Below are positions 21,436-42,064 of a stretch of DNA of 64,000 nt, piece after piece. Location of the stretch: assembly GCF_000013865.1 (NCBI RefSeq), contig NC_007948.1:3472001-3536000 (forward strand), in the 5' to 3' direction. Position 1 is the stretch's first letter; each line of letters starts with the position of its first letter. A model generated the notes under the pieces. That model made no database searches and had not been told where the DNA came from. It was given only the letters and a program-made list of their open reading frames with translations. Made by a program: the position numbers and the translations under genes. The stretch is from Polaromonas sp. JS666 (GTDB taxonomy: Bacteria > Pseudomonadota > Gammaproteobacteria > Burkholderiales > Burkholderiaceae_C).

Positions 21436-21462
21436 GAAGTTCCTGAGAAGTCGCCTTTGTCC

Positions 21463-27138: not shown

Positions 27139-27934
27139 TCCGCGCTGGCACTCCACGCCGCTGATCCGCGCATCCCTTGCGCTGCATGGGCTGGCACTGG
27201 TCGCCGTCGTCGCCGTGCCCGGGTTGTGGCGCTGGGCGCTGGCCGCCGTGGTGGCCAATCACCTGCTGATCGCCGCCGCTGGCCTGTGGCCGCGCAGCCA
27301 CTGGCTGGGGCCGAACTGGACACGGCTGCCCGCCGCCGCCACGGCCAGACATGAAATCGCCCTGACCATCGACGATGGCCCTGACCCCGTCGTCACCCCG
27401 CGGGTGCTGGACCTGCTCGATCGCCATGCGGTCAAGGCCACGTTTTTCTGCATCGGCGAACTGGCCGCGCGCTATCCGGAGCTGTGCCGCGAAATCGTCC
27501 GGCGCGGACATGCGGTCGAAAATCACAGCCAGCATCACCGCCATTATTTTTCCGTGATGGGCCCGCGCGGCCTGGCGCGGGAACTGCAAGCCGCGCAAGA
27601 AACGCTCACCCGAATCTGCGGCCAGCGACCGCTGTTCTTTCGTGCCCCGGCCGGCTTGCGCAACCCCTTCCTGGAGCCGGTGCTGGCCCGCTTCGGGCTC
27701 AGGCTTGCTACTTGGTCCGCACGGGGGTTCGACACCCGCATCGACGACGTTGATCGCGTCAAAAGCAGCCTGCTGCGCGGCCTGCGGGCGGGCGCCATCC
27801 TGCTGCTGCACGACGGCCATGCCGCGCGCACCCCGCAGGGCGTGCCCGTGATTCTCGCGGTGTTGCCGGGCGTGCTCGACGCTGCGGCCGCCGCCGGCCT
27901 GCGTGTTGTCACCTTGCGCCAGGCCCTGTCATGA
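27131..27934 (+). CDS. Polysaccharide deacetylase (NodB) family enzyme
   Basis: The protein of 267 residues has two N-terminal hydrophobic helices (residues 12-30 and 33-52) and a NodB domain with TIDDGPDP at 79-86 (metal ligand D82), the HSQHH metal motif near residue 137, RAPAGLRNPF and LLLHDGH. It deacetylates a sugar or related amide, probably on a membrane glycolipid intermediate. GTG 27131 overlaps the exporter stop and has GCGAGG upstream. The family is not in the usual core list of aryl-polyene genes. Confidence 0.85.
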   Translation: MPDPRWHSTPLIRASLALHGLALVAVVAVPGLWRWALAAVVANHLLIAAAGLWPRSHWLGPNWTRLPAAATARHEIALTIDDGPDPVVTPRVLDLLDRHAVKATFFCIGELAARYPELCREIVRRGHAVENHSQHHRHYFSVMGPRGLARELQAAQETLTRICGQRPLFFRAPAGLRNPFLEPVLARFGLRLATWSARGFDTRIDDVDRVKSSLLRGLRAGAILLLHDGHAARTPQGVPVILAVLPGVLDAAAAAGLRVVTLRQALS

Positions 27935-27977
27935 CTGCCTCGTCCGGCTGGTTTTCATGCAAGCAGCAGGTGGTGAA

Positions 27978-28706
27978 ATGCACACCCTGATCACGCACCC
28001 GCCCGCAACAGCCTGGTACCGTCAGGCTGCCGCGGTGATCCCCCAGCATCTCTACCTGAAAAGCGTGGGCACGACGCTTTTTATCAGCCTGTTTTTTGTC
28101 GCCTACTTTTACCTGCTCAAAAACCCCGCTCACACCACCACGGTGATGCCCGTCATCGGACTGGATCACCTGATCAGCTTCGAGCCGCTGGCCCTGCCGC
28201 TCTATCTCTCTCTGTGGGTCTATGTATCCCTGCTGCCGGCCTTTTTCTCGTCACGGCGAGAACTCTGCCGCTATGGCGCTGCCATGGCGTTGATGTGCCT
28301 GGCCGGCTTGGCCATTTTCTATTTCTGGCCCACCGCCGCCCCCCAGCCAAATATCGACTGGAGCCAGTACCCTGATGTGGGTCTGCTGAAGAGTCTCGAT
28401 GCCTCGGGCAATGCCTGCCCTTCCCTGCATGTCGCCACCGCGTTTTTCTCGGGCTTCTGGCTGCATCACCTGATGCGTCAATTCCGTGCGCCGCTGTGGA
28501 TACACCTGGTCAACTGGACCTGGTGCGTCGGCATCATCTATTCGACGCTGGCAGTCCGCCAGCATGTGGTGGTAGACGTCGCCGGAGGCCTTGTACTGGG
28601 CGGCTTGGCCGCCTGGCTGTCACTGCGTGGGCGCGGGGCCGCAAAGCGCCCGGACTTCGAAGCCGCCACAGGGCCGGGGGCAAGGACCGGCAAGGTTTCG
28701 CCTTGA
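27978..28706 (+). CDS. PAP2-family membrane phosphatase
   Basis: A 242-residue protein with about five membrane helices and the phosphatase motifs CPSLHVATAFFSGFW and VRQHVVVDVAGG. It would remove phosphate from a lipid phosphate, such as an undecaprenyl or phosphatidate-type intermediate. ATG 27978 is preferred to ATG 27957 since CAGGTGGTGA precedes it. It lies between the deacetylase and the ketosynthase and may act on the lipid anchor. An 84-base gap follows. Confidence 0.8.
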   Translation: MHTLITHPPATAWYRQAAAVIPQHLYLKSVGTTLFISLFFVAYFYLLKNPAHTTTVMPVIGLDHLISFEPLALPLYLSLWVYVSLLPAFFSSRRELCRYGAAMALMCLAGLAIFYFWPTAAPQPNIDWSQYPDVGLLKSLDASGNACPSLHVATAFFSGFWLHHLMRQFRAPLWIHLVNWTWCVGIIYSTLAVRQHVVVDVAGGLVLGGLAAWLSLRGRGAAKRPDFEAATGPGARTGKVSP

Positions 28707-28790
28707 AGCCCCGCCTGATGCGCCACATTCTGTGGTTCAAACCCTGTATTTGCTAACATCTCAGTTCATTTTTTGATTGGCTAGTTTTTT

Positions 28791-29987
28791 CTGAACCCGC
28801 TCTGGCTTTCTCATTTCACCGCCACCAGCTGCATCGGCCAAGGCCTGGGCGAGACGCTGGCTTCGCTGCGGGCGCAGCGCAGCGGCCTGAAGCCCTGCGA
28901 CTTCGATTCGGCTGACCTGCCCACCTGGATTGGGGCCGTCGAGGGCCTGGCCGACGAAGTCTTGCCCGCCGAACTCCAGGCCTTCGATTGCCGCAACAAC
29001 CGGCTGGCCCGGCTGGCCCTGCGGCAAGACAATTTCGAACTGGCGGTACGGGACGTGGCCGCACGCGTGGGACACCGGCGAATCGGCATCTTTCTGGGCA
29101 CCAGCACCTCCGGCATCCTGCAGACCGAGCTTGCCTACAGGCAACGGGACCCCGCCACCGGCGCGCTGCCCGCCAGCTTTATTTATGCATCCACGCACAA
29201 CCCCTACTCGGTGACGGCCTTCGTGCGCGAGTATTTCCGTCTCGAAGGGCCGGCGGTGACGGTGTCTTCGGCCTGCTCTTCCAGCGCCAAGGTCTTCGCT
29301 TCGGCCCGCCGCATGATGGCCGCCGGGCTGATTGACGCGGCCGTCGTCGGCGGGGTGGATTCTCTGTGCCTGACCACGCTGTACGGTTTCAACTCGCTGG
29401 ACCTGCTGTCCCGCAGCCCGTGCCAACCCTTTGACGCCGCGCGCAAGGGTATCTCCATTGGAGAAGGCGCCGCCTTTGCCTTGCTGGAAAGAAGCCCCGG
29501 CAGCCTGGACGCCAAGGCGGTTCTCCTGCGCGGCACCGGTGAGTCCAGCGATGCGCACCACATGTCGGCGCCGCATCCGGAAGGGCTGGGCGCCGTCATG
29601 GCGATGCGGCAGGCACTGGCCAGCGCGGGCCTGCAGCCCGGCGAGATCGACTACATCAACCTGCACGGCACGGCCACCCCGTCCAACGACGCGGCAGAAA
29701 GCAAAGCGGTCGCCGCCGTGTTTGGCGAGCATGCACAGCCCTGCAGTTCGACCAAGGGGGCGACTGGCCACACGCTGGGCGCGGCTGGCGGCATAGAGGC
29801 CGTGATCAGCGCGCTGGCCCTGCAGCAGGGCTTCATGCCGGGCGGCGTCAACACCGACAACGTAGACCCCAGCCTGCCGGTCAACTACCTGCTGAAAAAC
29901 CGCGATCAGGCGCTGACGCATGTGCTCAGCAATTCCTTTGGTTTCGGCGGCACCAACTGCAGCCTTGTTTTTGGCCGCGCCGGCTGA
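28791..29987 (+). CDS. Beta-ketoacyl-ACP synthase (ApeO-like) with CTG start
   Basis: Thiolase-fold condensing enzyme of 398 residues with triad C162 (VSSACSSSAKVF), H292 (LHGTATPSNDA) and H327 (KGATGHTLGAAGG), and the tail SFGFGGTNCSLVFG. The family N-terminus MNPLWLSHFTATSCIG is coded here as CTG AAC CCG, with a stop (TAG 28782) just upstream in frame, so no ATG, GTG or TTG is available before residue 58 (TTG 28962). Either CTG 28791 starts translation, or a base is missing in the T6 run at 28785-28790. It extends the polyene by two carbons per cycle. Confidence 0.85.
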   Translation: MNPLWLSHFTATSCIGQGLGETLASLRAQRSGLKPCDFDSADLPTWIGAVEGLADEVLPAELQAFDCRNNRLARLALRQDNFELAVRDVAARVGHRRIGIFLGTSTSGILQTELAYRQRDPATGALPASFIYASTHNPYSVTAFVREYFRLEGPAVTVSSACSSSAKVFASARRMMAAGLIDAAVVGGVDSLCLTTLYGFNSLDLLSRSPCQPFDAARKGISIGEGAAFALLERSPGSLDAKAVLLRGTGESSDAHHMSAPHPEGLGAVMAMRQALASAGLQPGEIDYINLHGTATPSNDAAESKAVAAVFGEHAQPCSSTKGATGHTLGAAGGIEAVISALALQQGFMPGGVNTDNVDPSLPVNYLLKNRDQALTHVLSNSFGFGGTNCSLVFGRAG

Positions 29988-30012
29988 ATGCCGAATACGT
30001 GAAACGCCGGAC

Positions 30013-30846
30013 ATGACTGCATCCAACCCACCCGCCGCCAGCCCGCTCACGGTTTTTGTCGAGGGCATAGGGCTGATAGGCCCCGGTTTTTCCAACTGGG
30101 AAGAAGGCCGCCAGCACCTGGCGGGCCTGACACCTTATGTCTCGCAAAAAACGCTGCTGCCATCGCCAATGTCGCTGCCACCTGCAGAACGCCGGCGCGC
30201 CGGTGCGGTCATCAAGGTTTCACTGGCGGTCGGCCATGAGGCGGTTGACGCGGCCGGACTGAGCGCCGCCGAACTGCCCTCGGTGTTCAGCTCCTCGAGT
30301 GGTGACGGCATCAATTGCCACGAGATCTGCTCGGCGCTGGCCTCCAGCGACCGGCTGATTTCGCCCACCCGCTTTCACAACTCGGTGCACAACGCGGCAT
30401 CGGGTTACTGGAGCATTTCCACCGGCGCCATGCCGCCTTCGTCCGTGCTGTGCGCCTACGACGGCAGTTTTGCCGCTGGCCTGCTGGAAGCGATGACGCA
30501 GGCCGTCATCGACGACACCCCGGTGCTGCTGGTGGCCTACGACACCGACTACCCGGAACCGCTGCGCAGCAAGCGGCCGGTGCCCGACACGATGGGCGTG
30601 GCGCTGGTCATCCGCCCCGGCGCCAGCGCACGCAGCCTGGCGCGCATCACGCTGCAGGGCGGCAACGGCCTGACCACGGCTGCGGCCACGGTGATGAGCG
30701 ACGCCGGGCTGGAGTTCCTGCGCCAGACCATTCCGGCCGCGCGCGCCTTGCCCCTGCTGCAGGCTCTTGCCCAGCAGCAGGCGGCGGCGCTGGTTCTGGA
30801 TTACCTGGACGGCACGCAACTGGCGCTGGAAGTCGCGCCGCCATGA
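30013..30846 (+). CDS. Ketosynthase-like chain length factor (ApeC-like)
   Basis: A 277-residue ketosynthase-like protein. The position of the catalytic cysteine reads VFSSSSGDGINCHE, and the usual histidines are not in place, as in chain length factors that pair with an active ketosynthase and set product length. Recognisable family text is SPTRFHNSVHNAASGYWSIS. It starts 26 bases after the ketosynthase and overlaps the next gene. A direct catalytic role is unlikely. Confidence 0.8.
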   Translation: MTASNPPAASPLTVFVEGIGLIGPGFSNWEEGRQHLAGLTPYVSQKTLLPSPMSLPPAERRRAGAVIKVSLAVGHEAVDAAGLSAAELPSVFSSSSGDGINCHEICSALASSDRLISPTRFHNSVHNAASGYWSISTGAMPPSSVLCAYDGSFAAGLLEAMTQAVIDDTPVLLVAYDTDYPEPLRSKRPVPDTMGVALVIRPGASARSLARITLQGGNGLTTAAATVMSDAGLEFLRQTIPAARALPLLQALAQQQAAALVLDYLDGTQLALEVAPP

Positions 30847-31349
30847 ACAGACCGCAGACCCTGAACCGGGACGACATCGCCCGCCGCATTCCGCATCAAG
30901 GCAGCATGTGCCTGCTCGACACCGTCACGGCCTGGGACGACAGCCACATCCGTTGCCAGGCCAGCAGCCACCGCGCGCCCGACCACCCGCTGCGGGCCCA
31001 TGGCCGGCTGGGAGCGGCCTGCGGGGTGGAATATGCGGCGCAAGCCATGGCGGTGCACGGCACCCTGATGGCCGAGGCGGCTGCGGGCACTGCCGGCGGC
31101 AGCACAGCACCGCGCGCCGGCTACCTGGCCAGCATGCGCAGCGTGAACCTGTACGTCGACCGGCTGGACACGGTGCCCGGCCCCCTGACGGTCAGCGCGG
31201 AGCGGATGACCGGGGACGCCAACACCGTGCTGTACAGCTTCACGGTTCAGGCCGGCGCCCAGACCCTGCTCAGCGGGCGCGCGGTTGTCGTGCTCGATGC
31301 GGCCCTGCTGCCGAGTCCCGTCAACAGCAGCGGCGGCAGCGCGGGCTGA
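30843..31349 (+). CDS. Hotdog-fold dehydratase (ApeP-like)
   Basis: The protein of 168 residues starts with IARRIPHQGSMCLLDTVTAWDD, typical of the ApeP-type hotdog dehydratases, and has GVEYAAQAMAVHG in the central helix. With the ApeI-like protein it would form the second dehydratase of the polyene pathway. ATG 30843 overlaps the preceding stop. The last 15 residues are serine/glycine-rich. Confidence 0.82.
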   Translation: MNRPQTLNRDDIARRIPHQGSMCLLDTVTAWDDSHIRCQASSHRAPDHPLRAHGRLGAACGVEYAAQAMAVHGTLMAEAAAGTAGGSTAPRAGYLASMRSVNLYVDRLDTVPGPLTVSAERMTGDANTVLYSFTVQAGAQTLLSGRAVVVLDAALLPSPVNSSGGSAG

Positions 31350-31376
31350 ACCAGCCGGCCCTTCAAGGACACCTTC

Positions 31377-32108
31377 ATGACCCCTCCCCTCAAACGCGCA
31401 CTTGTCACCGGCGGCAGCGGCGGCATCGGCTCGGCCATCTGCCGGCGCCTGGCGGCCGACGGCTTCAGCGTCATTGTTCATGCCAACAGCCATCTGGCCA
31501 CGGCGCAGGCCGTGGCGGCCAGCATCGCGGCCGACGGCGGTCAGGCGCAGGCCGTGGCTTTTGATGTCACCGATGCGTCCGCCACGGCGGCGGCGCTCGA
31601 GTCCCTGCTCGAACAGGGGCCCATCCAGGTGCTGGTCAACAACGCCGGCATCCACGACGACGCCGTGTTCCCCGGCATGCAGCTGTCCCAATGGCAGCGC
31701 GTGCTCGATGTGTCGCTCAACGGCTTTTTCCATGTCACCCAACCCCTGACGCTGCCGATGATACGGACCCGCTGGGGCCGCATCATCACCATCACCTCTG
31801 TGGCCGCCGTGGCCGGCAATCGGGGCCAGGTCAACTATTCGGCGGCCAAGGGAGCCCTGCACGCCGCCACCAAATCGCTGGCCCTCGAAGTAGCCAGCCG
31901 CGGCATCACGGTCAATGCCGTGGCGCCGGGCATCATTGACACGGCCATGAGCAATAGCAGCTTCAGTGCTGACGTCATCGAACGCATGGTGCCGATGAAG
32001 CGGGCCGGCAAGGCCGAAGAAGTGGCTGACCTCGTGGGCTTTTTGGCCTCGGAACGCGCGGCCTACATCAGCGGGCAGATCATTTCCATCAATGGCGGCA
32101 TGATCTGA
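31377..32108 (+). CDS. 3-oxoacyl-ACP reductase, FabG-like (ApeQ-like)
   Basis: A 243-residue short-chain dehydrogenase. The NADPH motif TGGSGGIG is at residues 11-18, the NNAG block at 88-91, and the catalytic S141, Y154 and K158 are all present (YSAAK). It reduces the 3-keto group in each cycle. AAGGA precedes the start. The C-terminal YISGQIISINGGM is standard for FabG. It ends the densely packed part of the operon; a 250-base gap follows. Confidence 0.9.
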   Translation: MTPPLKRALVTGGSGGIGSAICRRLAADGFSVIVHANSHLATAQAVAASIAADGGQAQAVAFDVTDASATAAALESLLEQGPIQVLVNNAGIHDDAVFPGMQLSQWQRVLDVSLNGFFHVTQPLTLPMIRTRWGRIITITSVAAVAGNRGQVNYSAAKGALHAATKSLALEVASRGITVNAVAPGIIDTAMSNSSFSADVIERMVPMKRAGKAEEVADLVGFLASERAAYISGQIISINGGMI

Positions 32109-32358
32109 CCCCCGAACCGGCAGTTATCCGCTTGACTGTTTAAAAAGACGTGTAAAACTGGCTGATCCAGCGTCAACGGCAATCACCTCAAGGGGAGAGC
32201 ACAACGCACTCCATCAAGCCCCCCGGGGGGCGCCTGGCCGCGTTGCTCCTCCTTGCAGGCATCAGCCTGCGTCATCGTCGCACCTTGCCAACGCACGCCC
32301 ATGACGGCCCACACCCGGCGCGTCCAACTGCCGTTTCAGGTCTACAGGTAAATGCCCC
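32109..32358. other. Gap between ketoreductase and methyltransferase
   Basis: No gene is seen. It holds a perfect palindrome GCCCCCCGGGGGGC at 32218-32231 without a T-run, and a TTGACT hexamer at 32132 with AT-rich DNA 13-15 bases later (TGTAAAAC), which could be a weak promoter for the methyltransferase gene. Confidence 0.4.
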
Positions 32359-33129
32359 ATGAAGACTTCCGAACCCGTCCCTACGACGCATGCACCCCAT
32401 ATTCCGCTCACTGATTACTACCAGACAGAGCAGGATAGACAAGCCTATTTGCGCAAGATTTTTGACAATACCGCTGCGGATTACGACCGTATCGAGGCGA
32501 TGTTGGCATGGGGCACTGGTTCCCGTTACCGGCACCAGGCCCTGATCCGGGGCGGTTTGCAAGCGGGCATGAAAGTGCTCGATGTGGGTGTGGGAACCGG
32601 CCTGGTTGCGGCGCAGGCCTGCCTCCTGGCCGGCGATCCCGCCTTGGTCACCGGGGTTGATCCCAGCCCCGGCATGATGGCGGCCAGCAAGCTGCCCAAG
32701 ACCATGGTGCTGATGGAGGGCCGGGCCGAATCATTGCCTTTTCCGGACAACCACTTTGATTTCCTGAGCATGGGCTATGCACTTCGCCACATCAGTGACC
32801 TGGGTGTGGCGTTTGCAGAGTTTCAACGGGTATTGAAGCCCGGTGGCCGTCTGTGCATCCTTGAAATAACCCAGGCGAAAAGCGGCTTGGGGCAGTGGCT
32901 GCTCAAAACTTACATGCGGGGTGTGATACCGCTGCTGACGCGGTTTATTTCCCGGGAAAAAGATACAGCAACGATCTGGCGTTACTACTGGGACAGCATA
33001 GAAGCCTGCGTCCCTCCCGAACAAGTCATGGCCACACTGAGGGCGGCCGGGCTGACGCAGGTCAAGCAACACCTGGAGGTTGGCGTGTTTTCGGAATACC
33101 AGGCGATCAAACCCGGGAACGCCAGTTGA
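32359..33129 (+). CDS. UbiE-like SAM-dependent methyltransferase
   Basis: The 256-residue class I methyltransferase has VLDVGVGTGLVAAQA near residues 74-88 (SAM motif I), GVDPSPGMM and the UbiE-like text YALRHISDLGVAFAEFQRVLKPGGRL. In aryl-polyenes the aromatic head is often methylated, and this enzyme is the best candidate for that step. An ordinary UbiE/menG role is less likely because the N-terminus differs and the neighbours are pigment genes. It ends the plus operon and converges with the glycosyltransferase operon. Confidence 0.78.
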   Translation: MKTSEPVPTTHAPHIPLTDYYQTEQDRQAYLRKIFDNTAADYDRIEAMLAWGTGSRYRHQALIRGGLQAGMKVLDVGVGTGLVAAQACLLAGDPALVTGVDPSPGMMAASKLPKTMVLMEGRAESLPFPDNHFDFLSMGYALRHISDLGVAFAEFQRVLKPGGRLCILEITQAKSGLGQWLLKTYMRGVIPLLTRFISREKDTATIWRYYWDSIEACVPPEQVMATLRAAGLTQVKQHLEVGVFSEYQAIKPGNAS

Positions 33130-33131
33130 CG

Positions 33132-33152
33132 GCCTGCCGCAGGAAGGCAGGC
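33132..33152. terminator. Hairpin between the convergent pigment operons
   Basis: GCCTGCC (33132-33138) and GGCAGGC (33146-33152) form a perfect 7-bp stem three bases after the methyltransferase stop. There is no T-run, so it is at best a weak or factor-assisted terminator. Confidence 0.35.
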
Positions 33153-33275
33153 ATCATGAGCACTGGCTTTGGGACGAACACCGTCACCAGGAGGGGAAGC
33201 GCCAGCCCAGCCTGAACCGTCAGTACTCACTGGCTGCGCTCAACTGCCGCTCCAGCAAAAAACTCCCAGGATTGT

Positions 33276-34052
33276 TCATGGGCGCCCGAACAAGCGCCTC
33301 GCCAGCAACACGGGCAGACGCAGCACAAACCCCAGAAACAGGCGCGAGTGCATCCAGGTCAGCAAGAGGTTGTCGCGCAGGTAATTGAAGTGCGAGACCC
33401 CGCCTTCGTCGGCGCGGAAATATTTGACCGTGGCCGGCAGGTTGACCGGCTTGACGCCGCGCCAGCACATGCGCACCACTGCCTCGGGGTCAAAGTCAAA
33501 ACGGCGCATCCAGCGCTGCCCGTGCATCACCTGGCGCAGCGGCTCGATCGGGTAGACGCGAAAGCCGAACAGCGAATCGCCAATGCCGGCCCACAGGGTT
33601 TCCAGGTTGGCCCAACCGTTAGACACCTTGCGGCCGTTGACGCGCAGCCGCGGCGCATCGGCCGCGAACACCGGCACGCCCAGCACCATGGCGGCGGGCT
33701 GGGCGGCAGAGGCGGCCATGAAGTCGGGAATCAGGGGCGCCGGGTGCTGGCCATCGGAGTCCATCGTCAACACATGCGTGAAGCCTTGCGCCGCGGCCAG
33801 GTCCAGCCCGTGCAGCACGGCAGCGCCCTTGCCGACGTTGTGCGGCAGCACCAGCACCCGCAGGCCTTCATCCTGCGCCGCCATCGCCTGCAGGCCTGCG
33901 GCGCTGGCATCGGTGCTGCCATCGACCACGACCCAGACAGGCGTCCACTGCGCGCGTGCCGAACGCACCGTGTCATAGACCTTGGGGCCGGGGTTGTAGC
34001 TGGGAATCAGGACAAGGTGCGTGCGGGACGCGCTGGGCAACAAGGCATTCAT
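33276..34052 (-). CDS. Family 2 glycosyltransferase
   Basis: A 258-residue GT-A type enzyme with VLIPSYNPG near the N-terminus, VVVDGSTD, GKGAAVLHGLDLA and the metal-binding MDSDGQHPAP. A C-terminal hydrophobic stretch (LFLGFVLRLPVLLARRLF) suggests membrane association. It would glycosylate the polyene lipid or its anchor. ATG 34052 was chosen over GTG 34058. It is the last gene of the three-gene minus operon. Confidence 0.85.
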   Translation of the reverse strand: MNALLPSASRTHLVLIPSYNPGPKVYDTVRSARAQWTPVWVVVDGSTDASAAGLQAMAAQDEGLRVLVLPHNVGKGAAVLHGLDLAAAQGFTHVLTMDSDGQHPAPLIPDFMAASAAQPAAMVLGVPVFAADAPRLRVNGRKVSNGWANLETLWAGIGDSLFGFRVYPIEPLRQVMHGQRWMRRFDFDPEAVVRMCWRGVKPVNLPATVKYFRADEGGVSHFNYLRDNLLLTWMHSRLFLGFVLRLPVLLARRLFGRP

Positions 34053-34096
34053 GGACACGAAAGAAGGGCAAAAGGAGAAAACGAAAGCGGCCCAAT

Positions 34097-34915
34097 TCAG
34101 GCCGGCGGTGCCTTGACCGGAAAGTCGGGCAACTGCGCATGCGCCAACTCGGCCTGGAAGTATTGCTCCAGCTCGCTGACAAAACGCGCCGTATGCTGGG
34201 GCGGATCAAACCGCTTGCCAAGCCGGACCCGGTAAGTGATGGGCATTTTAGGCGTCCACAGGAGTGACCAGCCTTTACCCAGAAAAGCCGAATCGGTTTC
34301 GATAAAAACCGTCTGCACCGGCACGCCGGCATTTTTGGCGATCAGCCCCGTCGTCCCCTGCATCGCACCCACAGGAAACCGGTTGGTGCGCGTGCCCTCC
34401 GGAAACAGCAGCAAATGACTACCCTGGCGTAAATCGGCAACGCCCAATTGCACCATGGTACGAATCGGCGTGTTGCGGATGTAGCCGGTCAGCCGGGCCC
34501 CCGCGCCGAAGAAGACGCTGTTGACCAGTTCGGCCTTCATGATGCAGGCTGCATTGGGCAGGCGCGACAAAATCATCACCGCATCGAGCAGCGACGGATG
34601 GTTGGGCGCAATGACCATGGCCGGCTCACCCCGCAGCGCATCGAGTTCCGACAGGTCGAAGCGGCAGGCGCCCATCAGCGTCAGAACCCGCAGATAGCCC
34701 CGGGCTGTTGCAGCGACCAGCTTGCGGCCCAGCCGTTTGCTGAGCACGCGCGGTAACAGGGCGCGCATCGGAAAGGCCAGCAGCGACACGACCAGACAGA
34801 TCACGCCCAGCAGCACAAAGCCCAGGTGCAGTCTCAGCGTTTGATGCAGGCCCATGCGTCTGGCATGCAGTGCGAGGTGCCGGTCAAGGGCAGCGTTCGG
34901 TTTGTGTTCCACCAT
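34097..34915 (-). CDS. PlsC-type 1-acyl-glycerol-3-phosphate acyltransferase
   Basis: The protein of 272 residues has a membrane helix near residues 28-50, the NHPSLLD catalytic block (HX4D) near residue 102, and FPEGTRTNRFPVG near 173. Such enzymes esterify lysophosphatidate-like acceptors. Its place between the halogenase-like gene and the glycosyltransferase suggests a role in attaching the polyene acid to a glycerolipid. It is separated from both neighbours by 20-45 bases. Confidence 0.85.
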   Translation of the reverse strand: MVEHKPNAALDRHLALHARRMGLHQTLRLHLGFVLLGVICLVVSLLAFPMRALLPRVLSKRLGRKLVAATARGYLRVLTLMGACRFDLSELDALRGEPAMVIAPNHPSLLDAVMILSRLPNAACIMKAELVNSVFFGAGARLTGYIRNTPIRTMVQLGVADLRQGSHLLLFPEGTRTNRFPVGAMQGTTGLIAKNAGVPVQTVFIETDSAFLGKGWSLLWTPKMPITYRVRLGKRFDPPQHTARFVSELEQYFQAELAHAQLPDFPVKAPPA

Positions 34916-34936
34916 ATAGTCAGTCGCGCGCAGCCT

Positions 34937-36286
34937 TCAACGGGCGAGCCCCGGGCCGTCCACAACACGGATGTTCGCCTTGCGCAGGCGCATAGCCTGC
35001 CACGAGCGCTTGAAGTTCAAGGCCGAGGCAATATAAAAAATGCCCTTGAGCACCGCCAGCGAACCCCAGATCGGCGTTTTGCCAAAAATATCGCCGGCCA
35101 GCATCGACAGCAGGGCTTCCTTGACGCGCCACACATTGCTGGGCGCCATAAACATGTCGCGCATGGTCGGGTTGGTCACGCGGTAGATGAACCACGAAAA
35201 CTCTTTGGGGCCCAGCCGCACCTGCTGGTCAAAATGCGCCAGTGCCGACGCGGCTTTGGCGGGTTCGCGCAGGCAGGTATCGACCGTCTCGGCCCCGACA
35301 AAGCCGCCCTGCATCGCCAGCATCACGCCGGACGAAAACACCGGGTCAATGAAGGTGAAGGCATCGCCAATCATCACGTAATTGGGGCCGTGCGTGCGAT
35401 CGCAGGCGTAGGAGAAATTGCCGGTCGCCTCCACTTCGGAGGCCAGCGTCGCATGGGCCAGCCGCTCGCTCAGGGCCGGGCACATCGCAATCGTGTCGAG
35501 GAAAAAATCCCTGACGGGCTTGGTCCGGCTCTTCAAATAATGCGGCCAGACCACCGCACCAATGCTGGTGAAGCCGTCCGCCAACGGGATCAGCCAGAAC
35601 CAGCCATGCTCGAACCAGAAGATGGTGATGTTGCCTTCGTCCTGGCCCGGATGCCGGATTGCACCGGTGAAGTGCCCATAGAGCGCGGAGCTGTTGTGTT
35701 TGGGATTGCGGCGTTTGACGTCGAACTGCTTGCCCAGCAAGGTGTCCCGCCCCGAGGCGTCCACGACAAAGCGGGCACGCCAGTGCTGCGTGCGGCCATC
35801 CTCGTGCTGCGCATGCACCGTGGCGCTGCCATGGTCGGCCGCAAACGCGACGTCCTTGACGCGGCAACCTTCAATGACTTCGGCACCCAGGCGGGCGGCA
35901 TTGCGGATCAGGATTTCGTCGAACTCGGAGCGCCGCACCTGGTAGGAAAACGGCATGGACTTGTCCCAGGCGTCGCCGAACTTGAAGGTCTGGCTCTTGG
36001 CCTCATGCCAGGGCGAGACAAATTCGGCGCCCCATTTCTCCATGCCGATGGCCTTGACGGCGTCGGCCACACCGAGTTTTTCAAACAGCGGCAGGTTGGC
36101 CGGCAGCAGCGACTCGCCAATGTGAAAGCGCGGGTGATGTTCTTTTTCGAGGACCACGACCTTGTGCCCCCGCTGCGCCAGCAACGCTCCCGCTGTGGCC
36201 CCCGCCGGACCACCACCGATCACCAGTACGTCGCATTCGCTCAGGGTTTCCGGGAATGAGGGGGTTGGAGAACTCTGCTCGGTCAT
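34937..36286 (-). CDS. Flavin-dependent halogenase-like oxidoreductase
   Basis: A 449-residue protein of the tryptophan-halogenase/geranylgeranyl-reductase superfamily. GGGPAG at residues 24-29 binds FAD, HIGESLLP is at 55-62, and WFWLIP at 229-234 matches the WxWxIP motif that characterises flavin halogenases. A lysine near residue 84 could be the catalytic lysine, but I cannot align it securely. Xanthomonadin clusters carry such an enzyme, and xanthomonadins are brominated. It starts the three-gene minus operon. A flavin reductase partner is not in the window. Confidence 0.82.
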   Translation of the reverse strand: MTEQSSPTPSFPETLSECDVLVIGGGPAGATAGALLAQRGHKVVVLEKEHHPRFHIGESLLPANLPLFEKLGVADAVKAIGMEKWGAEFVSPWHEAKSQTFKFGDAWDKSMPFSYQVRRSEFDEILIRNAARLGAEVIEGCRVKDVAFAADHGSATVHAQHEDGRTQHWRARFVVDASGRDTLLGKQFDVKRRNPKHNSSALYGHFTGAIRHPGQDEGNITIFWFEHGWFWLIPLADGFTSIGAVVWPHYLKSRTKPVRDFFLDTIAMCPALSERLAHATLASEVEATGNFSYACDRTHGPNYVMIGDAFTFIDPVFSSGVMLAMQGGFVGAETVDTCLREPAKAASALAHFDQQVRLGPKEFSWFIYRVTNPTMRDMFMAPSNVWRVKEALLSMLAGDIFGKTPIWGSLAVLKGIFYIASALNFKRSWQAMRLRKANIRVVDGPGLAR

Positions 36287-36501
36287 GGCGTGTCTTTCGT
36301 TGGGTACCGCCAGGCTGCGGCGTTGGGTCCCGGCAGGGTGGTCAGCCCCCGCCCGTCAGGTCGGTGAGCCTGCGGCACGGATGCACATCAACTGCAGAGA
36401 ATTGACAGAAATCCGGCAACCGGGCCAATTTACCACGCATCCAGCGACCGATTTACCGCACCTCCGGCGTCCGGCATTGGGTAAAGTGTGCGCAACGCAC
36501 C

Positions 36502-36747
36502 ATGACCCGCCCCTCGCCCGCCCTGGACACCCCGCCACCACTGGCTCTGTGCCTGCAGGGCCAGGCTCGGGACTGGTTGCGGGTGGCCCTGAGCCAGTAT
36601 GTAACCAATGGTCTCACGGTCTCGCTGGGCTTGGTGCTGTTCATGCCGGCCATCTTCGAGGCTGCCGGCCCGGCCGCGGCCTCTACCGCCGCGGTCGGTG
36701 TCTTGGTCACCAGCCTGCGGCAAGCAGCGGCCCGTGCGCTAGCCTGA
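36502..36747 (+). pseudogene. Truncated FUSC-family membrane protein gene
   Basis: The 81-residue frame contains WLRVALSQYVTNGLTVSLGL and AAASTAAVGVLVTSL, which resemble the N-terminus of FUSC-family (YccS/aromatic-acid efflux type) proteins of about 700 residues. The match ends near 36715 and the frame closes with unrelated RQAAARALA. The rest of the gene is missing. It marks the left edge of the accessory zone. The family assignment is from a short stretch only. Confidence 0.5.
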
Positions 36748-37239
36748 AGCCCCCCGAAGCCCCCCTGAAGCCGGACCGGGACAGGCCGCATCGATAATGC
36801 AGTTTCGAGCACAGTTCGCCGCTATTGCGCATTAACGAGCGTCGACGATTGATATGGCCCACTGAACCGCACGAAATACCACCAAAGCATGAGTGAAACA
36901 ATCCGGGTGACCCCAGAACACACCAATCCCTCCGGGCCACTTTAGCGCTACGCCCCCATGATGACCCATCATTGCCGTACCCGCATGGATGAAGACTCTC
37001 CAGCCCTTTTTAGAATTTTTGCCAGCGAAACTGCTAGCTCACTTTTGAACATCCATCTCACTGGATAATCGGAGTAGCCGCAGGGGTAGCGCGCAAGGTA
37101 AATAAGTCGCTCTTTTAAAATCGAAAGACGGCCGTTACATGCTGATACCATCGCCAGTATCTTTCAATCGCCCGCCATACCCAGCATTGGTGCCATGCGA
37201 ATGGTGTGGTGGAGTTAAAAAATTGTCCGGAGTATTCCC
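36748..37239. other. Gap at the left edge of the AT-richer island
   Basis: About 490 bases with no gene I can support. The first 40 bases repeat CCTGAAGCCCCCC-like text. Composition becomes visibly more AT-rich from about 36960. GATAAT at 37064 could be a -10 box, but no matching -35 is seen. GGAG at 37229 may be the ribosome-binding site of the next gene. Confidence 0.4.
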
Positions 37240-38055
37240 TTGCAGCCTGCAGCAACTACCGTAACTCCGTTTCTAAAGTGGGCTGGGGGGAAAAGGTGGC
37301 TTATCGAAAAGCATCCCTATCTACTTGGTGGAAAGTTCACCAGATTCATTGAGCCCTTTGTTGGCGGGGGCGCGGTTTTCTTTAGCCTACAACCCGACTC
37401 TGCCATCCTATGTGACAAAAATGAAAAGTTGATTGAGGTTTATGCGACCATCAAATCAAACTGGCAACGCGTGGAAGATCTTCTCGTGGAGCATCAGAAC
37501 AAGCACTCGCCTGAATATTATTACGAGATAAGGTCCAAAGACTATAGGACGCCTGAGACGCGTACGGCTCAACTAATTTATCTCAATAGGACTTGTTGGA
37601 ATGGGTTGTACCGTGTCAATAAGAAAGGCGAATTCAATGTTCCGGTCGGAACAAAGCAGACCGTAATTCTTCAAACCGATAACTTTGAAGGTGTGGCATC
37701 AATTCTGAAACGGGCCGAGTTGATTTGTGGTGACTTCGACGTTGCTATGAGCAAAGCTGGGGAAAACGATTTTGTATTTGTTGACCCCCCATACACAGTG
37801 AAGCACAACTACAACGGCTTCGTAAAGTACAACGAAAATATATTCTCTTGGGACGACCAACTACGGCTGCGGGATGCTGTGAAAGCGGCCATTTCGCGCG
37901 GTGCAAAGGTTTTGGTCACGAACGCTTGCCATGAAAGCATTAAGCGGATCTATGCTGGCATTGGAGAAATGTGTACCGTTGATAGAGCAAGCGTAATTGC
38001 CGGAAAAGCGTCTGCGCGCGGCAGGTACGAGGAGGTGATCATCAAATGTTTCTGA
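37240..38055 (+). CDS. D12-class N6-adenine DNA methyltransferase
   Basis: A 271-residue Dam-like enzyme. FLKWAGGKRWL at residues 8-18 is the SAM-binding motif, FIEPFVGGGAVFF follows near residue 36, and DPPY at 182-185 is the catalytic motif IV. It methylates adenine in a short DNA site, not predictable from sequence. No restriction endonuclease gene is adjacent. TTG 37240 is the first start after an upstream stop and has GGAG about 9 bases ahead. Codons are clearly more AT-rich than in the genes to the left. It overlaps the next gene by 10 bases. Confidence 0.88.
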   Translation: MQPAATTVTPFLKWAGGKRWLIEKHPYLLGGKFTRFIEPFVGGGAVFFSLQPDSAILCDKNEKLIEVYATIKSNWQRVEDLLVEHQNKHSPEYYYEIRSKDYRTPETRTAQLIYLNRTCWNGLYRVNKKGEFNVPVGTKQTVILQTDNFEGVASILKRAELICGDFDVAMSKAGENDFVFVDPPYTVKHNYNGFVKYNENIFSWDDQLRLRDAVKAAISRGAKVLVTNACHESIKRIYAGIGEMCTVDRASVIAGKASARGRYEEVIIKCF

Positions 38056-38669
38056 AAGTTCTTGGTCGTATTCCACTTCTGCAGTGCTTGACTTACTTTC
38101 CGGCCCAGGCTCATAAGTCGGCAAGCAAGAAATTTTTCGCTCTACTATTTTTAACCAGTCTGCCGGTCATAGTTGCCGCCATGCTCGCGCCAATCCCGGA
38201 GGGTGATGCCGGTGCCTTTGCAAAGCTTCTGATCAAGCTGAAAGACTCAATAACTGTATCTGAGCTTTTCGTTTATTCGGCAGCGTTCCTGACGCCGATT
38301 CTCTATCTTCACTATGAACGTTTCAGTGACGTACCCAGATCTCAAATTGCTGAGAAATTGGTAAAGGAAGCTAAGGGCATATTTAGTGGATACGGGCTAG
38401 TTGCATTACTGGCCTTGCTTTTTATCGTTTTCACCGCTATAGCATTTAGCAGCACTAAGACCGACGCGGCGTACTTTCAAAAAAGTTTCCTGAACTACTA
38501 CTTAGTCGAGTACTCACTTGAAGTCTATATTTTTTCGCTTTATTGTTTTTATCTGACCCTGCTAGATGGCGCAAATGCCGGTAACTTTGTCGTAGTAAAT
38601 CGAAAAAAAGAAGATGACATAGAGATTGAATTCGCGGAGAGATTGAGGAAACGGGAATTAGAAAAATGA
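38046..38669 (+). CDS. Unrecognised four-helix membrane protein
   Basis: I do not recognise this 207-residue protein. Hydrophobic segments are near residues 30-50 (FFALLFLTSLPVIVAAMLA), 73-90 (ELFVYSAAFLTPILYLHY), 115-134 (GYGLVALLALLFIVFTAIAF) and 150-172. The C-terminus is a charged cytoplasmic-type tail (NRKKEDDIEIEFAERLRKRE). It overlaps the methyltransferase gene by 10 bases and the DGQHR gene by ATGA, so the three are surely translated together. In a defence setting a small membrane protein is often the effector; that is inference only. Confidence 0.7.
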   Translation: MFLKVLGRIPLLQCLTYFPAQAHKSASKKFFALLFLTSLPVIVAAMLAPIPEGDAGAFAKLLIKLKDSITVSELFVYSAAFLTPILYLHYERFSDVPRSQIAEKLVKEAKGIFSGYGLVALLALLFIVFTAIAFSSTKTDAAYFQKSFLNYYLVEYSLEVYIFSLYCFYLTLLDGANAGNFVVVNRKKEDDIEIEFAERLRKRELEK

Positions 38670-39856
38670 CGACCAAAATCAAATTGCCAGTGCTGTTGGT
38701 GCGGCAGCCGATAGGGGATTTTTATATCGCGTCGATCAGAGCACAGGACCTTATCGATTTGTCTTACTCAGACGTTAGACGCCTTGTTCAAGATGAACGG
38801 GACTTGGAGCGCTACCTTGGTATTCAGAGACCACTTAGCAACAAACGCGTAAAAGAAATCCGCGAGTACATCGGCGGCGATGACGCGACATTCCCCACAG
38901 CGGTCATCCTCGCAGTCGATGAAAAATGCGCTGAATTTGAGGCGACCGGCTTAAATTGCGGATTTCTTACCTTGAAAGAATTTGAACCAGATCTCGACTC
39001 CGAAGAAGCCGTTCCTTACGATCGCATAGCGAAGGTCATAGATGGACAGCATCGAATTGCGGCATTTTTGGATGATGAAAAAGAATGGCAGTATGGATAC
39101 GGAAAAAACTTTGACATCAACGTTTCGATTTTTATTGGTGCCGACGTTTCGGAGCAAGCAAACATTTTTGCCACCGTCAACCTCGCCCAGACAAAGGTTA
39201 GCAAGAACCTTGTTTACGATCTAACAGAACTAGCAAAAACGCCTAGTCCTCACAAGACATGTCACAACGTAGCAGTTGCCCTCGATCGACAACGCTTAAG
39301 TCCACTTTACAAAAGGATAAAGCGGCTTGGCACCGCAACACCAGGTCGAAGTAAAGAACCGTTAACCCAAGCTTCATTTGTTGAATCGTTGGTTAAATTC
39401 ATATCTATTAATCCAGGAAAAGATCGGAATGCGCTCCTCTCTGGAATCAAGATCGACAGAGCCTCTGCAGCAGAGCTTCAAAAATGTCCTTTTAGGAACC
39501 TCTTCCTTGATGGCCGGGAGGTAGACATCATTGAAATTATCTACAACTACTTCAAAGCAATTGAAGAGAAGTGGCCACGGTCATGGGGGGAGCCAGACAG
39601 AGTCGGGAATTTGTTGCCTCGCTCCAATGCTTTTAAGGCGTTTATGATTTATTTGCGGGAAGATGTTTACCCCGCGTTGGTTCAAGGTAACTTTGGCGCT
39701 ATTCCGACAACCGAAGATTTTAGAAAGTCGCTTTCCCACATTGAAGCCACGGATACCGACTTCACCAAACGCAACTTTGCACCTGGCAGCGGTGGTCAAT
39801 CAACATTCTTGAAGATGTTGCGTGGACAAATCAATCTTTATGACATGCTGGAATAG
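38666..39856 (+). CDS. DGQHR-domain (DndB-like) protein
   Basis: A 396-residue protein with the defining motif VIDGQHRIAAF, DGQHR at residues 126-130, followed by QANIFATVNLAQTKVSKNLVYDL, as in DndB and related ParB-like DGQHR proteins. DndB regulates the phosphorothioate DNA modification operon in Dnd systems; other DGQHR proteins occur in defence islands with unknown roles. No dndACDE genes are here. It is the third gene of the overlapping operon with the adenine methyltransferase and the membrane protein. Confidence 0.82.
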   Translation: MTTKIKLPVLLVRQPIGDFYIASIRAQDLIDLSYSDVRRLVQDERDLERYLGIQRPLSNKRVKEIREYIGGDDATFPTAVILAVDEKCAEFEATGLNCGFLTLKEFEPDLDSEEAVPYDRIAKVIDGQHRIAAFLDDEKEWQYGYGKNFDINVSIFIGADVSEQANIFATVNLAQTKVSKNLVYDLTELAKTPSPHKTCHNVAVALDRQRLSPLYKRIKRLGTATPGRSKEPLTQASFVESLVKFISINPGKDRNALLSGIKIDRASAAELQKCPFRNLFLDGREVDIIEIIYNYFKAIEEKWPRSWGEPDRVGNLLPRSNAFKAFMIYLREDVYPALVQGNFGAIPTTEDFRKSLSHIEATDTDFTKRNFAPGSGGQSTFLKMLRGQINLYDMLE

Positions 39857-40539
39857 TCGCCCAAGGCAAATAGGAACTTTATAAATTTGACACTACATCC
39901 TCATATAGGGCATGTTAGCCTGGGCAACTAGGGTGGCACATCATGATGCATAGCATCTTGTGGAAGCCCTGCATTGTCGTGAGGCCAGCACGATTGAGTA
40001 CCAAGGTGACCATTGGTGTTCGAACTGAGGAAGTTTGCCACCCCACCAGACCCAGAGCTGTTCACTTCTAGGCAAAAAGGCTACAAAGAGCCTGAGCGGG
40101 CGGTATGCCGCGCAGAGCACTGTCTTAGGGAACTGCAGCGCTTGCAGCTAGACCGGGGATATACCGGATGGTTTCTAGGAAGAAGGTGAGTGGGTGTGCA
40201 GGGGTTGCCGTTTCGGTGGGTAGGCAATTAGCCCTTCGAACTTTGGGCCTCAGTCGACATTCCCATGCCAAGGAACTCCAATCCCGTCATATGCAAGATA
40301 ATTGCCTTTGGCAGATAGCCGTGGATCAGACAATCCTGGATATCAACTCCGCGACAAACAGTTTTTCCGTTCTCGTGTCTTCAGTTTTGGCGCTAAATTG
40401 GTGGAATTTTGCCAATCAAATTTGCTGAATTGCAACGCGTAAAAGGAAGATAGAGATTGATAGACAAGGTCGTGAAAAGTTGACGAAAAGCGAAAAAACA
40501 ACCAGCCTACAAAGGGAGAATAGGATAACGTCGCCTCAC
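39857..40539. other. Gene-poor stretch between the DGQHR operon and the mutS fragment
   Basis: About 680 bases without a recognised gene. GGGTGGCA (39931-39938) and TGCCACCC (40036-40043) are perfect 8-bp inverted repeats 97 bases apart. A 58-codon frame from TTG 40013 to TGA 40189 has charged text (RQKGYKEPERAVCRAEH) but no recognised family; a frame from 40168 to 40428 looks random. From 40480 a TTG frame runs into the mutS fragment. Confidence 0.4.
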
Positions 40540-41001
40540 ACGCCCATGATGCAGCAGTACCTTGGCATCAAGGCCGGTTACCCCGACACGCTGGTTTTCT
40601 ACCGCATGGGTGACTTTTACGAAGTCTTTTTCGCCGATGCCGAAAAAGCCGCGCGCCTGCTCGACATCACGCTGACGCGGCGCGGCCAGTCGGGCGGCGA
40701 GCCGGTGGTGATGGCCGGCGTGCCCTTTCATTCGCTGGAAGGCTACCTGGCCAAACTGATCAAGCTCGGCGAGTCCGTCGCCATCTGCAAGCAGGTCGGT
40801 GACGTCGCGACATCCAAGGGCCCGGTCGAGCGCAAGGTGGTGCGCGTGGTAACGCCTGGCACGCTGACCGATACCGAGCTGCTGAACGACAAGGCCGAAT
40901 CGATTTTCTGGCCGTGCACCAAGGCGCGCGCGACACCTGCGGGCTGGCCTGGCTGAGCGCTACGCAGGGTGAAATTCACCTGACCCATTGCACCAATGAC
41001 G
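40540..41001 (+). pseudogene. 5' fragment of mutS, frameshifted
   Basis: Bases 40540-41001 match the start of the intact mutS (59831-60292) at about nine of ten positions by eye. Homology begins abruptly at ACGCCCATGATGCAGCAG. One G is missing after TTTT at 40907 (ATTTTCTGG here, ATTTTGCTGG in the intact gene), which shifts the frame, so the frame from 40480 stops at 40956. Most differences are at third codon positions, so the copy probably diverged while it was a working gene. It covers about residues 9-162 of MutS. Confidence 0.9.
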
Positions 41002-41240
41002 GTGACATCGCCGTGACCTGGGCTCTGGATGGGCACGGCATCCTCATGCGTGCCGAGTGGGACATAGCCAAATACCTCAGAAGCGGGCGGCTGCAGCAGG
41101 TGTTGAAAAACTACAGGACGCCGCCGGCCGACATCTACGCCGTGTATCCCCAACGGCATCAACTCGCCAGGCGAGTACGGGTCTTCGTGGATTTTCTTTG
41201 TCAGTCGTTCGAACGGAAATCGATCATCCAGACCGTTTGA
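41002..41240 (+). pseudogene. 3' fragment of a LysR-type regulator gene
   Basis: Directly after the mutS homology the frame reads DGHGILMRAEWDIAKYL, RSGRLQQVLKNYRTPPADIY and AVYPQRHQLARRVRVFVDFL, the standard C-terminal end of a LysR-family regulator's effector domain. The N-terminal HTH and most of the effector domain are absent. It is in frame with the mutS text from 40914, so the junction makes a MutS-LysR chimeric frame of 108 residues. It cannot work as a regulator. Confidence 0.85.
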
Positions 41241-41350
41241 AGATGAGTGCCTCCATCAGAAGATGTCTGCTGTGGCGCCTGGCGTAGCTGACCTGGTTGG
41301 CCTGGTTGGCAACCAGCTGGACACCACTGCAGTGCTGCAACAGCCGCAAC

Positions 41351-42064
41351 TCATTCCACGCCTTTGATAACCTTCATCACCGCAGCATCACGCTGAACCT
41401 GCTGCAGTGTGCCTTCGAAGATGATTTCGCCCCGCTCAATGACATAGATTTTTTGCGCAAACGAAGGAAGGTGGTAAAAATTTGACTCGGCCAGCAGTAC
41501 ACCGCGCCCCTGTGCAACGATTTTTTGCAGGCCCTCACTGATGACCGGAATAATGGCTGGCGAGAGGCCTTCGAATGCCTCATCCAGCAGCAGCATTTCC
41601 GGGTCCAGTGCCAGAGCGCGAGCGATGGACACCATCTTTCGTTCTCCTCCTGAAAGCTGGTGTCCGCCTCGGTGAAGATACTGAAGCAGCTTGGGGAAGA
41701 CTTCATAAGCCTTCCGGATCCGCTCCTGTTCCGAGGTGTCGGTTCGACGCGTCCAGGTCGGTAGCGCAATGTTGTCCTCTACCGACAGCTCCCCAAAAAC
41801 ATCGCTGCCCTCGGGGGTGTAGCCCACACCAAGTGCTGCAATCCGGTGGGTATCCAGTCCCTTGATGGATTTGTCCTTCCAGAGAACGTCGCCGCCATGA
41901 ATCGCCTGGTAACCCATGATCGAGCGCATCGTCGTCGTTTTTCCCGCTCCGTTGCGTCCCACAAGGCACACCAGTTCACCGGCGTTCACCGCCCCGGAGA
42001 TGCCCCGCAGCACGCTGTTTCCGAAGATGGAAACGCTTAACCCTTTGACTTCCAGCAATCGCAT
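41351..42064 (-). CDS. livF: Branched-chain-type ABC importer ATPase LivF (system 1)
   Basis: A 237-residue ATPase with Walker A GRNGAGKTT near residues 36-44, signature LSGGERKM near 135-142, and Walker B LLLDE. It lacks the C-terminal extension of LivG. It overlaps livG by ATGA and is the last gene of the five-gene operon reading left from 46002. A substrate other than branched-chain amino acids is likely given the catabolic neighbours. Confidence 0.9.
   Translation of the reverse strand: MRLLEVKGLSVSIFGNSVLRGISGAVNAGELVCLVGRNGAGKTTTMRSIMGYQAIHGGDVLWKDKSIKGLDTHRIAALGVGYTPEGSDVFGELSVEDNIALPTWTRRTDTSEQERIRKAYEVFPKLLQYLHRGGHQLSGGERKMVSIARALALDPEMLLLDEAFEGLSPAIIPVISEGLQKIVAQGRGVLLAESNFYHLPSFAQKIYVIERGEIIFEGTLQQVQRDAAVMKVIKGVE

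What the first reader, a model, noticed from the sequence alone, without database searches (positions are those of the whole stretch)
37240..39856. Candidate undescribed defence operon: adenine methyltransferase, membrane protein, DGQHR protein
Three overlapping genes (10-bp and 4-bp overlaps) of AT-richer composition sit in a scarred insertion zone. They join a D12-class methyltransferase, a four-helix membrane protein with a charged tail and a DndB-like DGQHR protein. There is no endonuclease and no dnd or dpd genes. I know of no named system with this triad. A plausible model is that the methyltransferase marks self DNA, the DGQHR protein senses or controls modification, and the membrane protein is the effector.
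Basis: partly seen in the sequence, partly recalled or inferred. Interest (0 to 1): 0.7.

Follow-up and report, generated by a model that had tools for sequence, protein, structure and literature searches.

The report
Methylase, membrane protein and DGQHR trio
Three overlapping bacterial genes (a DNA-marking enzyme, a small membrane protein and a nucleotide-switch-like protein) form a set that recurs in very distant bacteria without any other constant partner, and it looks like an undescribed way of telling own DNA from foreign DNA, although no test of function has been done.

Summary
In detail: a D12 adenine methyltransferase (MTase), a four-helix membrane protein (TM) and a DGQHR protein overlap by 10 and 4 bp in a GC-poor insert. 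The triad is not a local accident. Of 84 related loci (Proteobacteria, Bacteroidota, Planctomycetes and others), 82 have a TM gene in front of DGQHR; the other two are cut at a contig end. 78 of 84 carry an adenine MTase, in 7 of them of the different MT-A70 family. No other gene family recurs in more than three loci except integrases and an ABC-protein cluster. The TM-DGQHR pair also occurs with BglII/BstYI-family restriction enzymes and beside Dnd genes. Three loci lie within about 3 kb of a phage portal gene (one directly beside it), a published antiphage hotspot position of P2-like prophages. The DGQHR N-terminus models, with moderate scores, as a ParB-type nucleotide switch, the fold of the modification readers SspE and DndI. 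Best reading: a modification-based defence in which MTase marks self, DGQHR reads DNA state and TM executes or anchors the response. Defence and both roles are inferred. Seven literature searches found no description. 'No endonuclease' holds here but not for all relatives.

The parts
37240..38055 (+). D12-class (Dam/DpnM-like) N6-adenine DNA methyltransferase, 271 aa, TTG start, catalytic DPPY at 37783-37794
   Evidence: Pfam MethyltransfD12 4.6e-47; TIGR00571 dam family 232.6 bits, cut-off 114.85; M.DpnII structure 2dpm 7.3e-51; DPPY in 67 of 67 aligned triad MTases
38046..38669 (+). Small membrane protein, 207 aa, four helices plus charged C-terminal helix (residues 181-206)
   Evidence: AlphaFold2 pLDDT 91.2, helices among others 20-37/39-47, 71-94, 114-139, 157-177, 181-206; 34 homologues besides itself; same slot in 82 of 84 related loci; no family above cut-off
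38666..39856 (+). DGQHR (DndB-like) protein, 396 aa; ParB-type N-terminal domain about residues 12-177, helical C-terminal part
39041..39055 (+). DGQHR motif (residues 126-130); with GIQR (52-55) and FATVN (168-172) the three signature motifs of the domain are intact
   Evidence: D126-R130, R55, F168 and N172 invariant in 56 sequences, Q54 in 90% or more; motifs as described in PMC4619093, passages
38046..38055 (+). 10-bp overlap MTase/TM
   Evidence: sequence
38666..38669 (+). 4-bp ATGA overlap TM/DGQHR
   Evidence: sequence; a start codon giving a 4-bp overlap is available in 38 of 80 related loci

Best explanation
The triad is a compact, horizontally moved, modification-based defence module. 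The MTase methylates adenine in a short site (GATC or a close relative is the most likely target) over the host genome, which gives the self mark. The DGQHR protein, a ParB-type nucleotide switch, binds DNA and couples nucleotide binding or hydrolysis to the methylation state. On unmethylated incoming DNA it engages the four-helix membrane protein through that protein's charged tail, and the membrane protein carries out the response (membrane damage, or holding the DNA at the membrane). Shown by computation: the conserved gene set, intact catalytic and signature motifs, predicted folds, co-divergence, patchy distribution. Inferred: methylation target, reading of methylation, TM as effector or anchor, and defence itself.
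For: Gene set: TM gene directly before DGQHR in 82 of 84 loci, the other two cut at contig ends. Adenine MTase in 78 of 84: 69 D12 by phmmer (61 upstream same strand, 3 downstream same strand, 5 downstream opposite strand), 7 MT-A70 by phmmer, one of them also by Pfam, 2 divergent D12. Replacement of one MTase family by another suggests that the mark itself is needed. In the same 1.4 Mb, 70 of 71 D12 hits lie within 3.1 kb of DGQHR. No other constant partner: among 837 neighbouring proteins of 85 loci, clusters found in more than 3 loci are the MT-A70 MTase (7), an integrase (7; one member checked by Pfam) and a cluster holding the window's ABC-transporter genes (5). Distances of the three proteins correlate (rho 0.42-0.56; 0 of 500 permutations reach them; 66 loci plus window; host relatedness not removed). 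Reader role: the N-terminus aligns with ParB/PadC/Noc and, lower, with SspE, BrxU and DndI, and DndI and SspE are described as phosphorothioate-sensing NTPases with a ParB-like domain (PMC11662687, abstract and passages). DGQHR relatives with a small membrane-protein gene in front lie beside Dnd genes on three plasmids, and TM-DGQHR pairs occur with BglII/BstYI-family REases. Defence setting: L082 is directly beside, and L060 and L084 within about 3 kb of, a phage portal gene, the side of the gpA-gpQ antiphage hotspot of P2-like phages described in PMC9122126 (passages). Patchy: found in 1 of 87 genus genomes and 1 of 399 order genomes, in both cases only the window's own.
Against: No experiment. 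No fold match for the TM protein, so 'effector' is a guess from its place. Foldseek support for the ParB fold is weak (best E 0.06); VIA Z stays under 8, where the tool warns of common arrangements, and SspE (4.0) scores no higher than sulfiredoxins (4.1-4.2). Four loci (L006, L010, L033, L055) have the pair with no MTase found; in L010 the near neighbours downstream are dihydrofolate reductase and thymidylate synthase. REases with the pair in some loci suggest that TM-DGQHR may be auxiliary. The P2 position was seen on the portal side only; the proteins tested on the other flank of L060 and L082 gave no Pfam match. The defence-gene neighbours have no control set and capped lists.
Confidence: 0.5

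Rival explanations
1. TM-DGQHR is a regulatory or loading accessory of DNA modification. The DGQHR protein limits or directs the MTase (as DndB is said to restrain Dnd, or as DpdB is said to power Dpd insertion) and the TM protein anchors it. Restriction is done by a separate enzyme, present in some loci, lost or elsewhere here.
For: BglII/BstYI-family REase with the pair in L025, L049, pTR3_1, pRiA4 and the Rhizobium B230/85 plasmid, the last two nearly identical; HNH gene in L080 and a weak PD-(D/E)XK match in L079; Dnd genes beside relatives of the pair. DndB is described as an ATP-dependent negative regulator and DpdB as the ATPase of base insertion, dispensable in some clusters (passages of PMC10853773 and PMC12839542).
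Against: In most loci I found no REase: 7 of 84 by seeds and Pfam, plus one HNH-type and one type IIG model among 291 nearest neighbours. This is a lower bound, since only the first 25 of 104, 38 and 282 matching families were shown. The pair is kept with two MTase families.
Confidence: 0.28
2. The triad serves the mobile element: it methylates and tethers element DNA (ParB-like binding, membrane anchor) to escape host restriction or to help maintenance.
For: Prophage and integrase neighbours in some loci; plasmid copies; the ParB relative Noc uses CTP to regulate membrane binding, and ParB-fold/MTase fusions are enriched in prophages (PMC12704722, passages).
Against: Few relatives in phages: 2 distant ones in 50,697 phage records and 4 in the viral contigs (a pattern-limited scan). 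Not examined: parS-like arrays, ParA, and how many of the 84 loci lie inside a mobile element.
Confidence: 0.12
3. An orphan epigenetic regulator (Dam-like) with unrelated passenger genes.
For: The MTase scores above the Dam-family cut-off; the genome has two further D12 MTases.
Against: The triad order and co-divergence across phyla speak against passengers; presence in 1 of 87 genus genomes does not fit a core regulator.
Confidence: 0.05

Closest known systems
DndI / SspE (DUF262 DGQQR NTPase readers of DNA phosphorothioation)
   Different: They carry a nuclease domain in the same protein (PMC11662687, passages); ours has a helical C-terminus with no Pfam nuclease match and a membrane-protein partner; the mark is predicted to be methyl-adenine, not sulphur
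DndB and 'DNA phosphorothioation-associated DGQHR protein 1' (TIGR04172)
   Same: PF14072/TIGR03187 family; TIGR04172 is the best-scoring of the Dnd/Dpd models in NCBIfam, 177.7 bits over residues 8-388; three plasmid relatives also follow a small membrane protein
   Different: Below the TIGR04172 cut-off of 450 and the DndB cut-off of 328; no DndC/DndD over cut-off here; homology of the two kinds of membrane protein not shown (2.5 and 6.3% probability)
DpdB (7-deazaguanine DNA modification)
   Same: best PADLOC profile, 82 bits; DGQHR family
   Different: 71.9 bits against an NCBIfam cut-off of 300; other Dpd genes not sought
Type II restriction-modification with Dam/DpnM-like MTase (BglII/BstYI family)
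   Same: D12 MTase; some relatives pair TM-DGQHR with a BglII-family REase
   Different: no REase seen beside the window's MTase; two extra conserved genes
Noc / ParB
   Different: only DndB matched in Pfam, no HTH or dimerisation domain; membrane role would lie in a separate protein

Membership tests
Type II restriction-modification system | cognate DNA methyltransferase | tested here: met
   D12 MTase with intact DPPY and N-terminal WAGGK; activity untested
Type II restriction-modification system | endonuclease gene beside the methyltransferase | tested here: not met
   ORFs of 36200-41400 show none by eye, with Pfam run on the three genes and one flank fragment only; BglII family not found in the genome, but that control rang nowhere
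Dnd phosphorothioation system | DndC and DndD | tested here: not met
   no match over cut-off in the 5.9-Mb genome; two DndC-like matches below cut-off on other contigs; no control genome over the cut-off
Dnd phosphorothioation system | DndB equivalog | tested here: not met
   24.9 bits, cut-off 328
Dpd system | DpdB equivalog | tested here: not met
   71.9 bits, cut-off 300
Dpd system | DpdA and other dpd genes | not tested
   no call made
DGQHR domain family (TIGR03187) | score over curated cut-off and intact DGQHR, QR and FxxxN motifs | tested here: met
   243.8 bits against 58.85; motifs conserved
Dam-family adenine MTase (TIGR00571) | score over cut-off | tested here: met
   232.6 against 114.85
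Dam-family adenine MTase (TIGR00571) | GATC specificity | tested here: inconclusive
   N121, R125, P135 align with E. coli Dam and are the same in 67, 67 and 66 of 67 triad MTases, but 'TK' replaces 'RY' at 138-139; residue roles are recalled
SspE/DndI-type modification reader | ParB-type NTPase domain | tested here: inconclusive
SspE/DndI-type modification reader | fused HNH/DUF1524 nuclease domain | tested here: not met
   Pfam at E up to 1 finds only DndB, residues 32-188
SspE/DndI-type modification reader | nucleotide hydrolysis stimulated by the mark | not testable with these tools
   needs purified protein

The most novel reading that the evidence does not exclude
A nuclease-free counterpart of restriction-modification: an adenine methyl mark is read by a ParB-type nucleotide switch that, on unmarked DNA, fires a dedicated four-helix membrane protein instead of cutting DNA. 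The TM-DGQHR pair would then be a portable reader-executor cassette that has been joined to at least three kinds of marking machinery (D12 MTases, MT-A70 MTases, and, in more distant relatives, phosphorothioation).
Probability: 0.3. Interest if true: 0.9.

Novelty: new variant of a known kind. Interest (0 to 1): 0.66.

Why it matters
If right, self/non-self discrimination by DNA methylation need not end in DNA cutting: a mark could be read by a nucleotide switch and answered at the membrane. It would also suggest a role for a large protein family (3737 proteins at E <= 1e-10 from one query, with candidates capped; those that carry a readable source name among the 120 listed are called only DGQHR proteins or hypothetical), and it supplies a compact three-gene test object of 2.6 kb.

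Tried and rejected
Passenger or chance clustering: made very unlikely. A hidden nuclease in DGQHR or TM: no match in Pfam, PADLOC, NCBIfam, PHROGs or PDB sequences that suggests one. TM fold: no PDB match with E below 0.001; not evidence of a new fold. Homology of the triad TM with the membrane proteins beside Dnd: not shown. A promoter: no sigma-70-like match in 36800-40480, against 4.8 expected in shuffles, so the scan says nothing. Attachment repeats around the insert: only short imperfect repeats. Enrichment of defence genes: PADLOC on 291 nearest neighbours showed scattered Type I, IIG, III, Septu-, Gabija-like, MADS- and PDC models, one to three members each, but without a control and with only the first 25 of 104, 38 and 282 families shown, so I claim no enrichment. 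Prevalence: the order-level search found only the window's own genome among 399, although one search lists relatives in named species that I recall as Burkholderiales (such as Diaphorobacter and Hydrogenophaga); the sample, or the threshold of 1e-60, may explain this. One search found 141 relatives by two peptide patterns, of which 80 were kept. Of the 35 proteins (the window's own included), 24 share the length of their longest contig with a DGQHR hit, which hints at linkage but was not checked contig by contig. Papers: PMC4241021 and PMC3763556 (cited ParB-superfamily and modified-base surveys, in which such an operon could be listed) are not held, so 'not in print' is limited to searches of open-licence papers; one search was about the P2 hotspot only.

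Full report
What is there. The three ORFs are exactly where the finding puts them: MTase 37240-38055, TM 38046-38669, DGQHR 38666-39856, all on + and overlapping by 10 and 4 bp. GC drops to 44-49% across them. No DGQHR relative was found in the other 86 genomes of the genus (E <= 1e-30) or the other 398 of the order (E <= 1e-60) that were searched, and it is the only PF14072 gene of its genome. Downstream, 40480-40953 repeats the start of an ORF that reads as mutS (93% over 129 aa), whose long copy stands at 59678-62401, so the region has been rearranged.

The triad recurs. A scan of one genome per species found 141 relatives of DGQHR, of which 80 loci were kept; a viral scan gave 4. I examined all 84. 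A small membrane-protein gene directly precedes DGQHR in 82 of 84: 80 by position and L011 and L033 by profile hit. L007 and L025 begin at the contig edge. The membrane proteins look like one family although in most loci they share only 10-22% identity with ours: the A2 profile hits 48 of 84 loci, and two sets of the remainder (16 loci, and 17 loci plus one plasmid) match as profiles with 99.0% and 99.9% probability; L024 was not compared. An adenine MTase is present in 78 of 84: D12 by phmmer in 69 (61 upstream on the same strand, 58 of them ending within 1.2 kb of the DGQHR start; 3 downstream; 5 downstream on the other strand), MT-A70 in 7 by phmmer (L068 confirmed by Pfam), and divergent D12 in L026 and L080. 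L006, L010, L033 and L055 have none that I found, and L007 and L012 are cut off at contig ends. As an internal control, 70 of 71 D12 hits in these 1.4 Mb lie within 3.1 kb of DGQHR.

No other constant partner, but mobile company. Among 837 neighbouring proteins of 85 loci (window included), the only clusters in more than three loci are an integrase (7), the MT-A70 MTase (7) and one holding the window's ABC-transporter genes (5). L082 lies directly beside a phage portal gene, L060 and L084 within about 3 kb of one with other genes between; terminase genes follow in L060 and L082 by Pfam. PMC9122126 (passages) places an antiphage hotspot of P2-like phages between gpA and the portal gpQ; I saw the portal side only, and the proteins tested on the other flank of L060 and L082 had no Pfam match. 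L040, L042 and L083 follow HTH repressor-like genes, with a gpD-like tail gene further on in L083 and, below cut-off, L042. Co-divergence: Spearman rho of pairwise distances is 0.557 (DGQHR-TM), 0.422 (DGQHR-MTase) and 0.466 (TM-MTase) over 66 loci plus the window, with 0 of 500 permutations as high. The 66 are the loci with all three genes, DGQHR over 350 aa and MTase over 200 aa; host relatedness was not removed.

The partner changes, the pair stays. I read 7 of the 10 plasmid hits. TM-DGQHR stands with a DNA adenine methylase and a BglII/BstYI-family REase (Acinetobacter pTR3_1), with an MT-A70 MTase and a BglII/BstYI-family REase (pRiA4 and the nearly identical Rhizobium B230/85 stretch), with a Dam-family MTase alone (Roseateles XES5), and, for DGQHR relatives of only 27-28% identity, beside dndC/dndD genes (Rhizobium phaseoli, Aureimonas) or phosphorothioation-restriction genes (Pontibrevibacter). 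Among the 84 loci, BglII-family REases occur in L025 (Pfam) and L049 (phmmer). L080 has an HNH gene and a D12 MTase, L079 two D12 MTases and a gene with a weak PD-(D/E)XK match, and L014, L027 and L073 an extra DGQHR protein of about 760-790 aa; Pfam, run on L014 and L027, gives its N-terminus only nuclease-fold matches under the cut-off. Further nuclease models turned up among the nearest neighbours, in lists cut at 25 families, so the number of loci with a nuclease is a lower bound. Homology of the Dnd-side membrane proteins with ours could not be shown.

Mechanism. From papers: ParB-like DGQQR proteins sense modification. DndI's ATPase is stimulated by phosphorothioate DNA, and SspE's GTPase is triggered by it (PMC11662687, abstract and passages). 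ParB-type folds bind CTP, ATP or GTP, a DndB-like one ATP and GTP (PMC12704722, passages). DndB is described as an ATP-dependent regulator and DpdB as the ATPase of the Dpd system (passages of PMC10853773 and PMC12839542). From this I infer: MTase writes, DGQHR reads, TM acts or anchors. The swap between two MTase families fits a need for the mark rather than for one enzyme. The faster divergence of the TM protein (10-22% identity where DGQHR keeps 40-53% in most loci) fits an interface under conflict but also a mere anchor.

What speaks against. No function was tested. REases with some pairs mean that TM-DGQHR could be an accessory, which is the main rival at 0.28. Four loci keep the pair without an MTase that I could find. 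The ParB fold rests on moderate scores. Two survey papers that might already list this operon could not be read.

Novelty. Seven searches of open-licence papers gave no description of this triad (listings, with passages read in PMC4619093, PMC4507180, PMC10853773, PMC12704722, PMC12839542, PMC11662687, PMC3226654 and PMC12757443), and no PADLOC model matches the TM protein. The principle (mark plus reader) is known; the combination of an adenine mark, a stand-alone ParB-type reader and a dedicated membrane protein is, as far as I could search, not. Hence 'new variant of a known kind', with a bolder reading at 0.3.

Noticed in passing
window 40480-41000 and 59678-62401: A 5' fragment of what reads as mutS (93% identical over 129 aa to the long copy 19 kb away) lies just downstream of the triad, followed by what looks like the end of another gene; a rearrangement or integration scar.
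   Followed up: partly
L014:7045-9321, L073:6968-9268, L027:1745-4126: Extra DGQHR proteins of about 760-790 aa, in L014 and L027 with an N-terminal stretch weakly resembling nuclease folds (Pfam matches below cut-off), sit beside MTase, TM and the short DGQHR gene; possibly a nuclease version of the same system.
   Followed up: partly
L087, L090, L091 (plasmids of Rhizobium phaseoli, Aureimonas, Pontibrevibacter): DGQHR genes beside dnd-type genes also follow a gene annotated hypothetical that reads as a small membrane protein with four hydrophobic segments; a possible unannotated member of Dnd loci.
   Followed up: partly
L088 and L092 (pRiA4 and Rhizobium B230/85 plasmid): A plasmid stretch carries MT-A70 MTase, BglII-family REase, a VapC-family gene, a 364-aa orphan and the TM-DGQHR pair; the orphan and the VapC-family gene recur in L032 beside an MT-A70 MTase.
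   Followed up: no
G000:C1:3548043-3548741 and C1:3935151-3935828: Two further D12 MTases in the same genome, whose only PF14072 gene is that of the triad.
   Followed up: no
window about 21457-36286: A run of ORFs that read, by eye and from memory, like ketosynthases, reductases, acyltransferases, an MMPL exporter and a FAD oxidoreductase, as in an aryl-polyene-type biosynthetic cluster; no family search made.
   Followed up: no
L018:11393-12340: A gene with a SIR2-like domain follows the triad in Ramlibacter albus.
   Followed up: no
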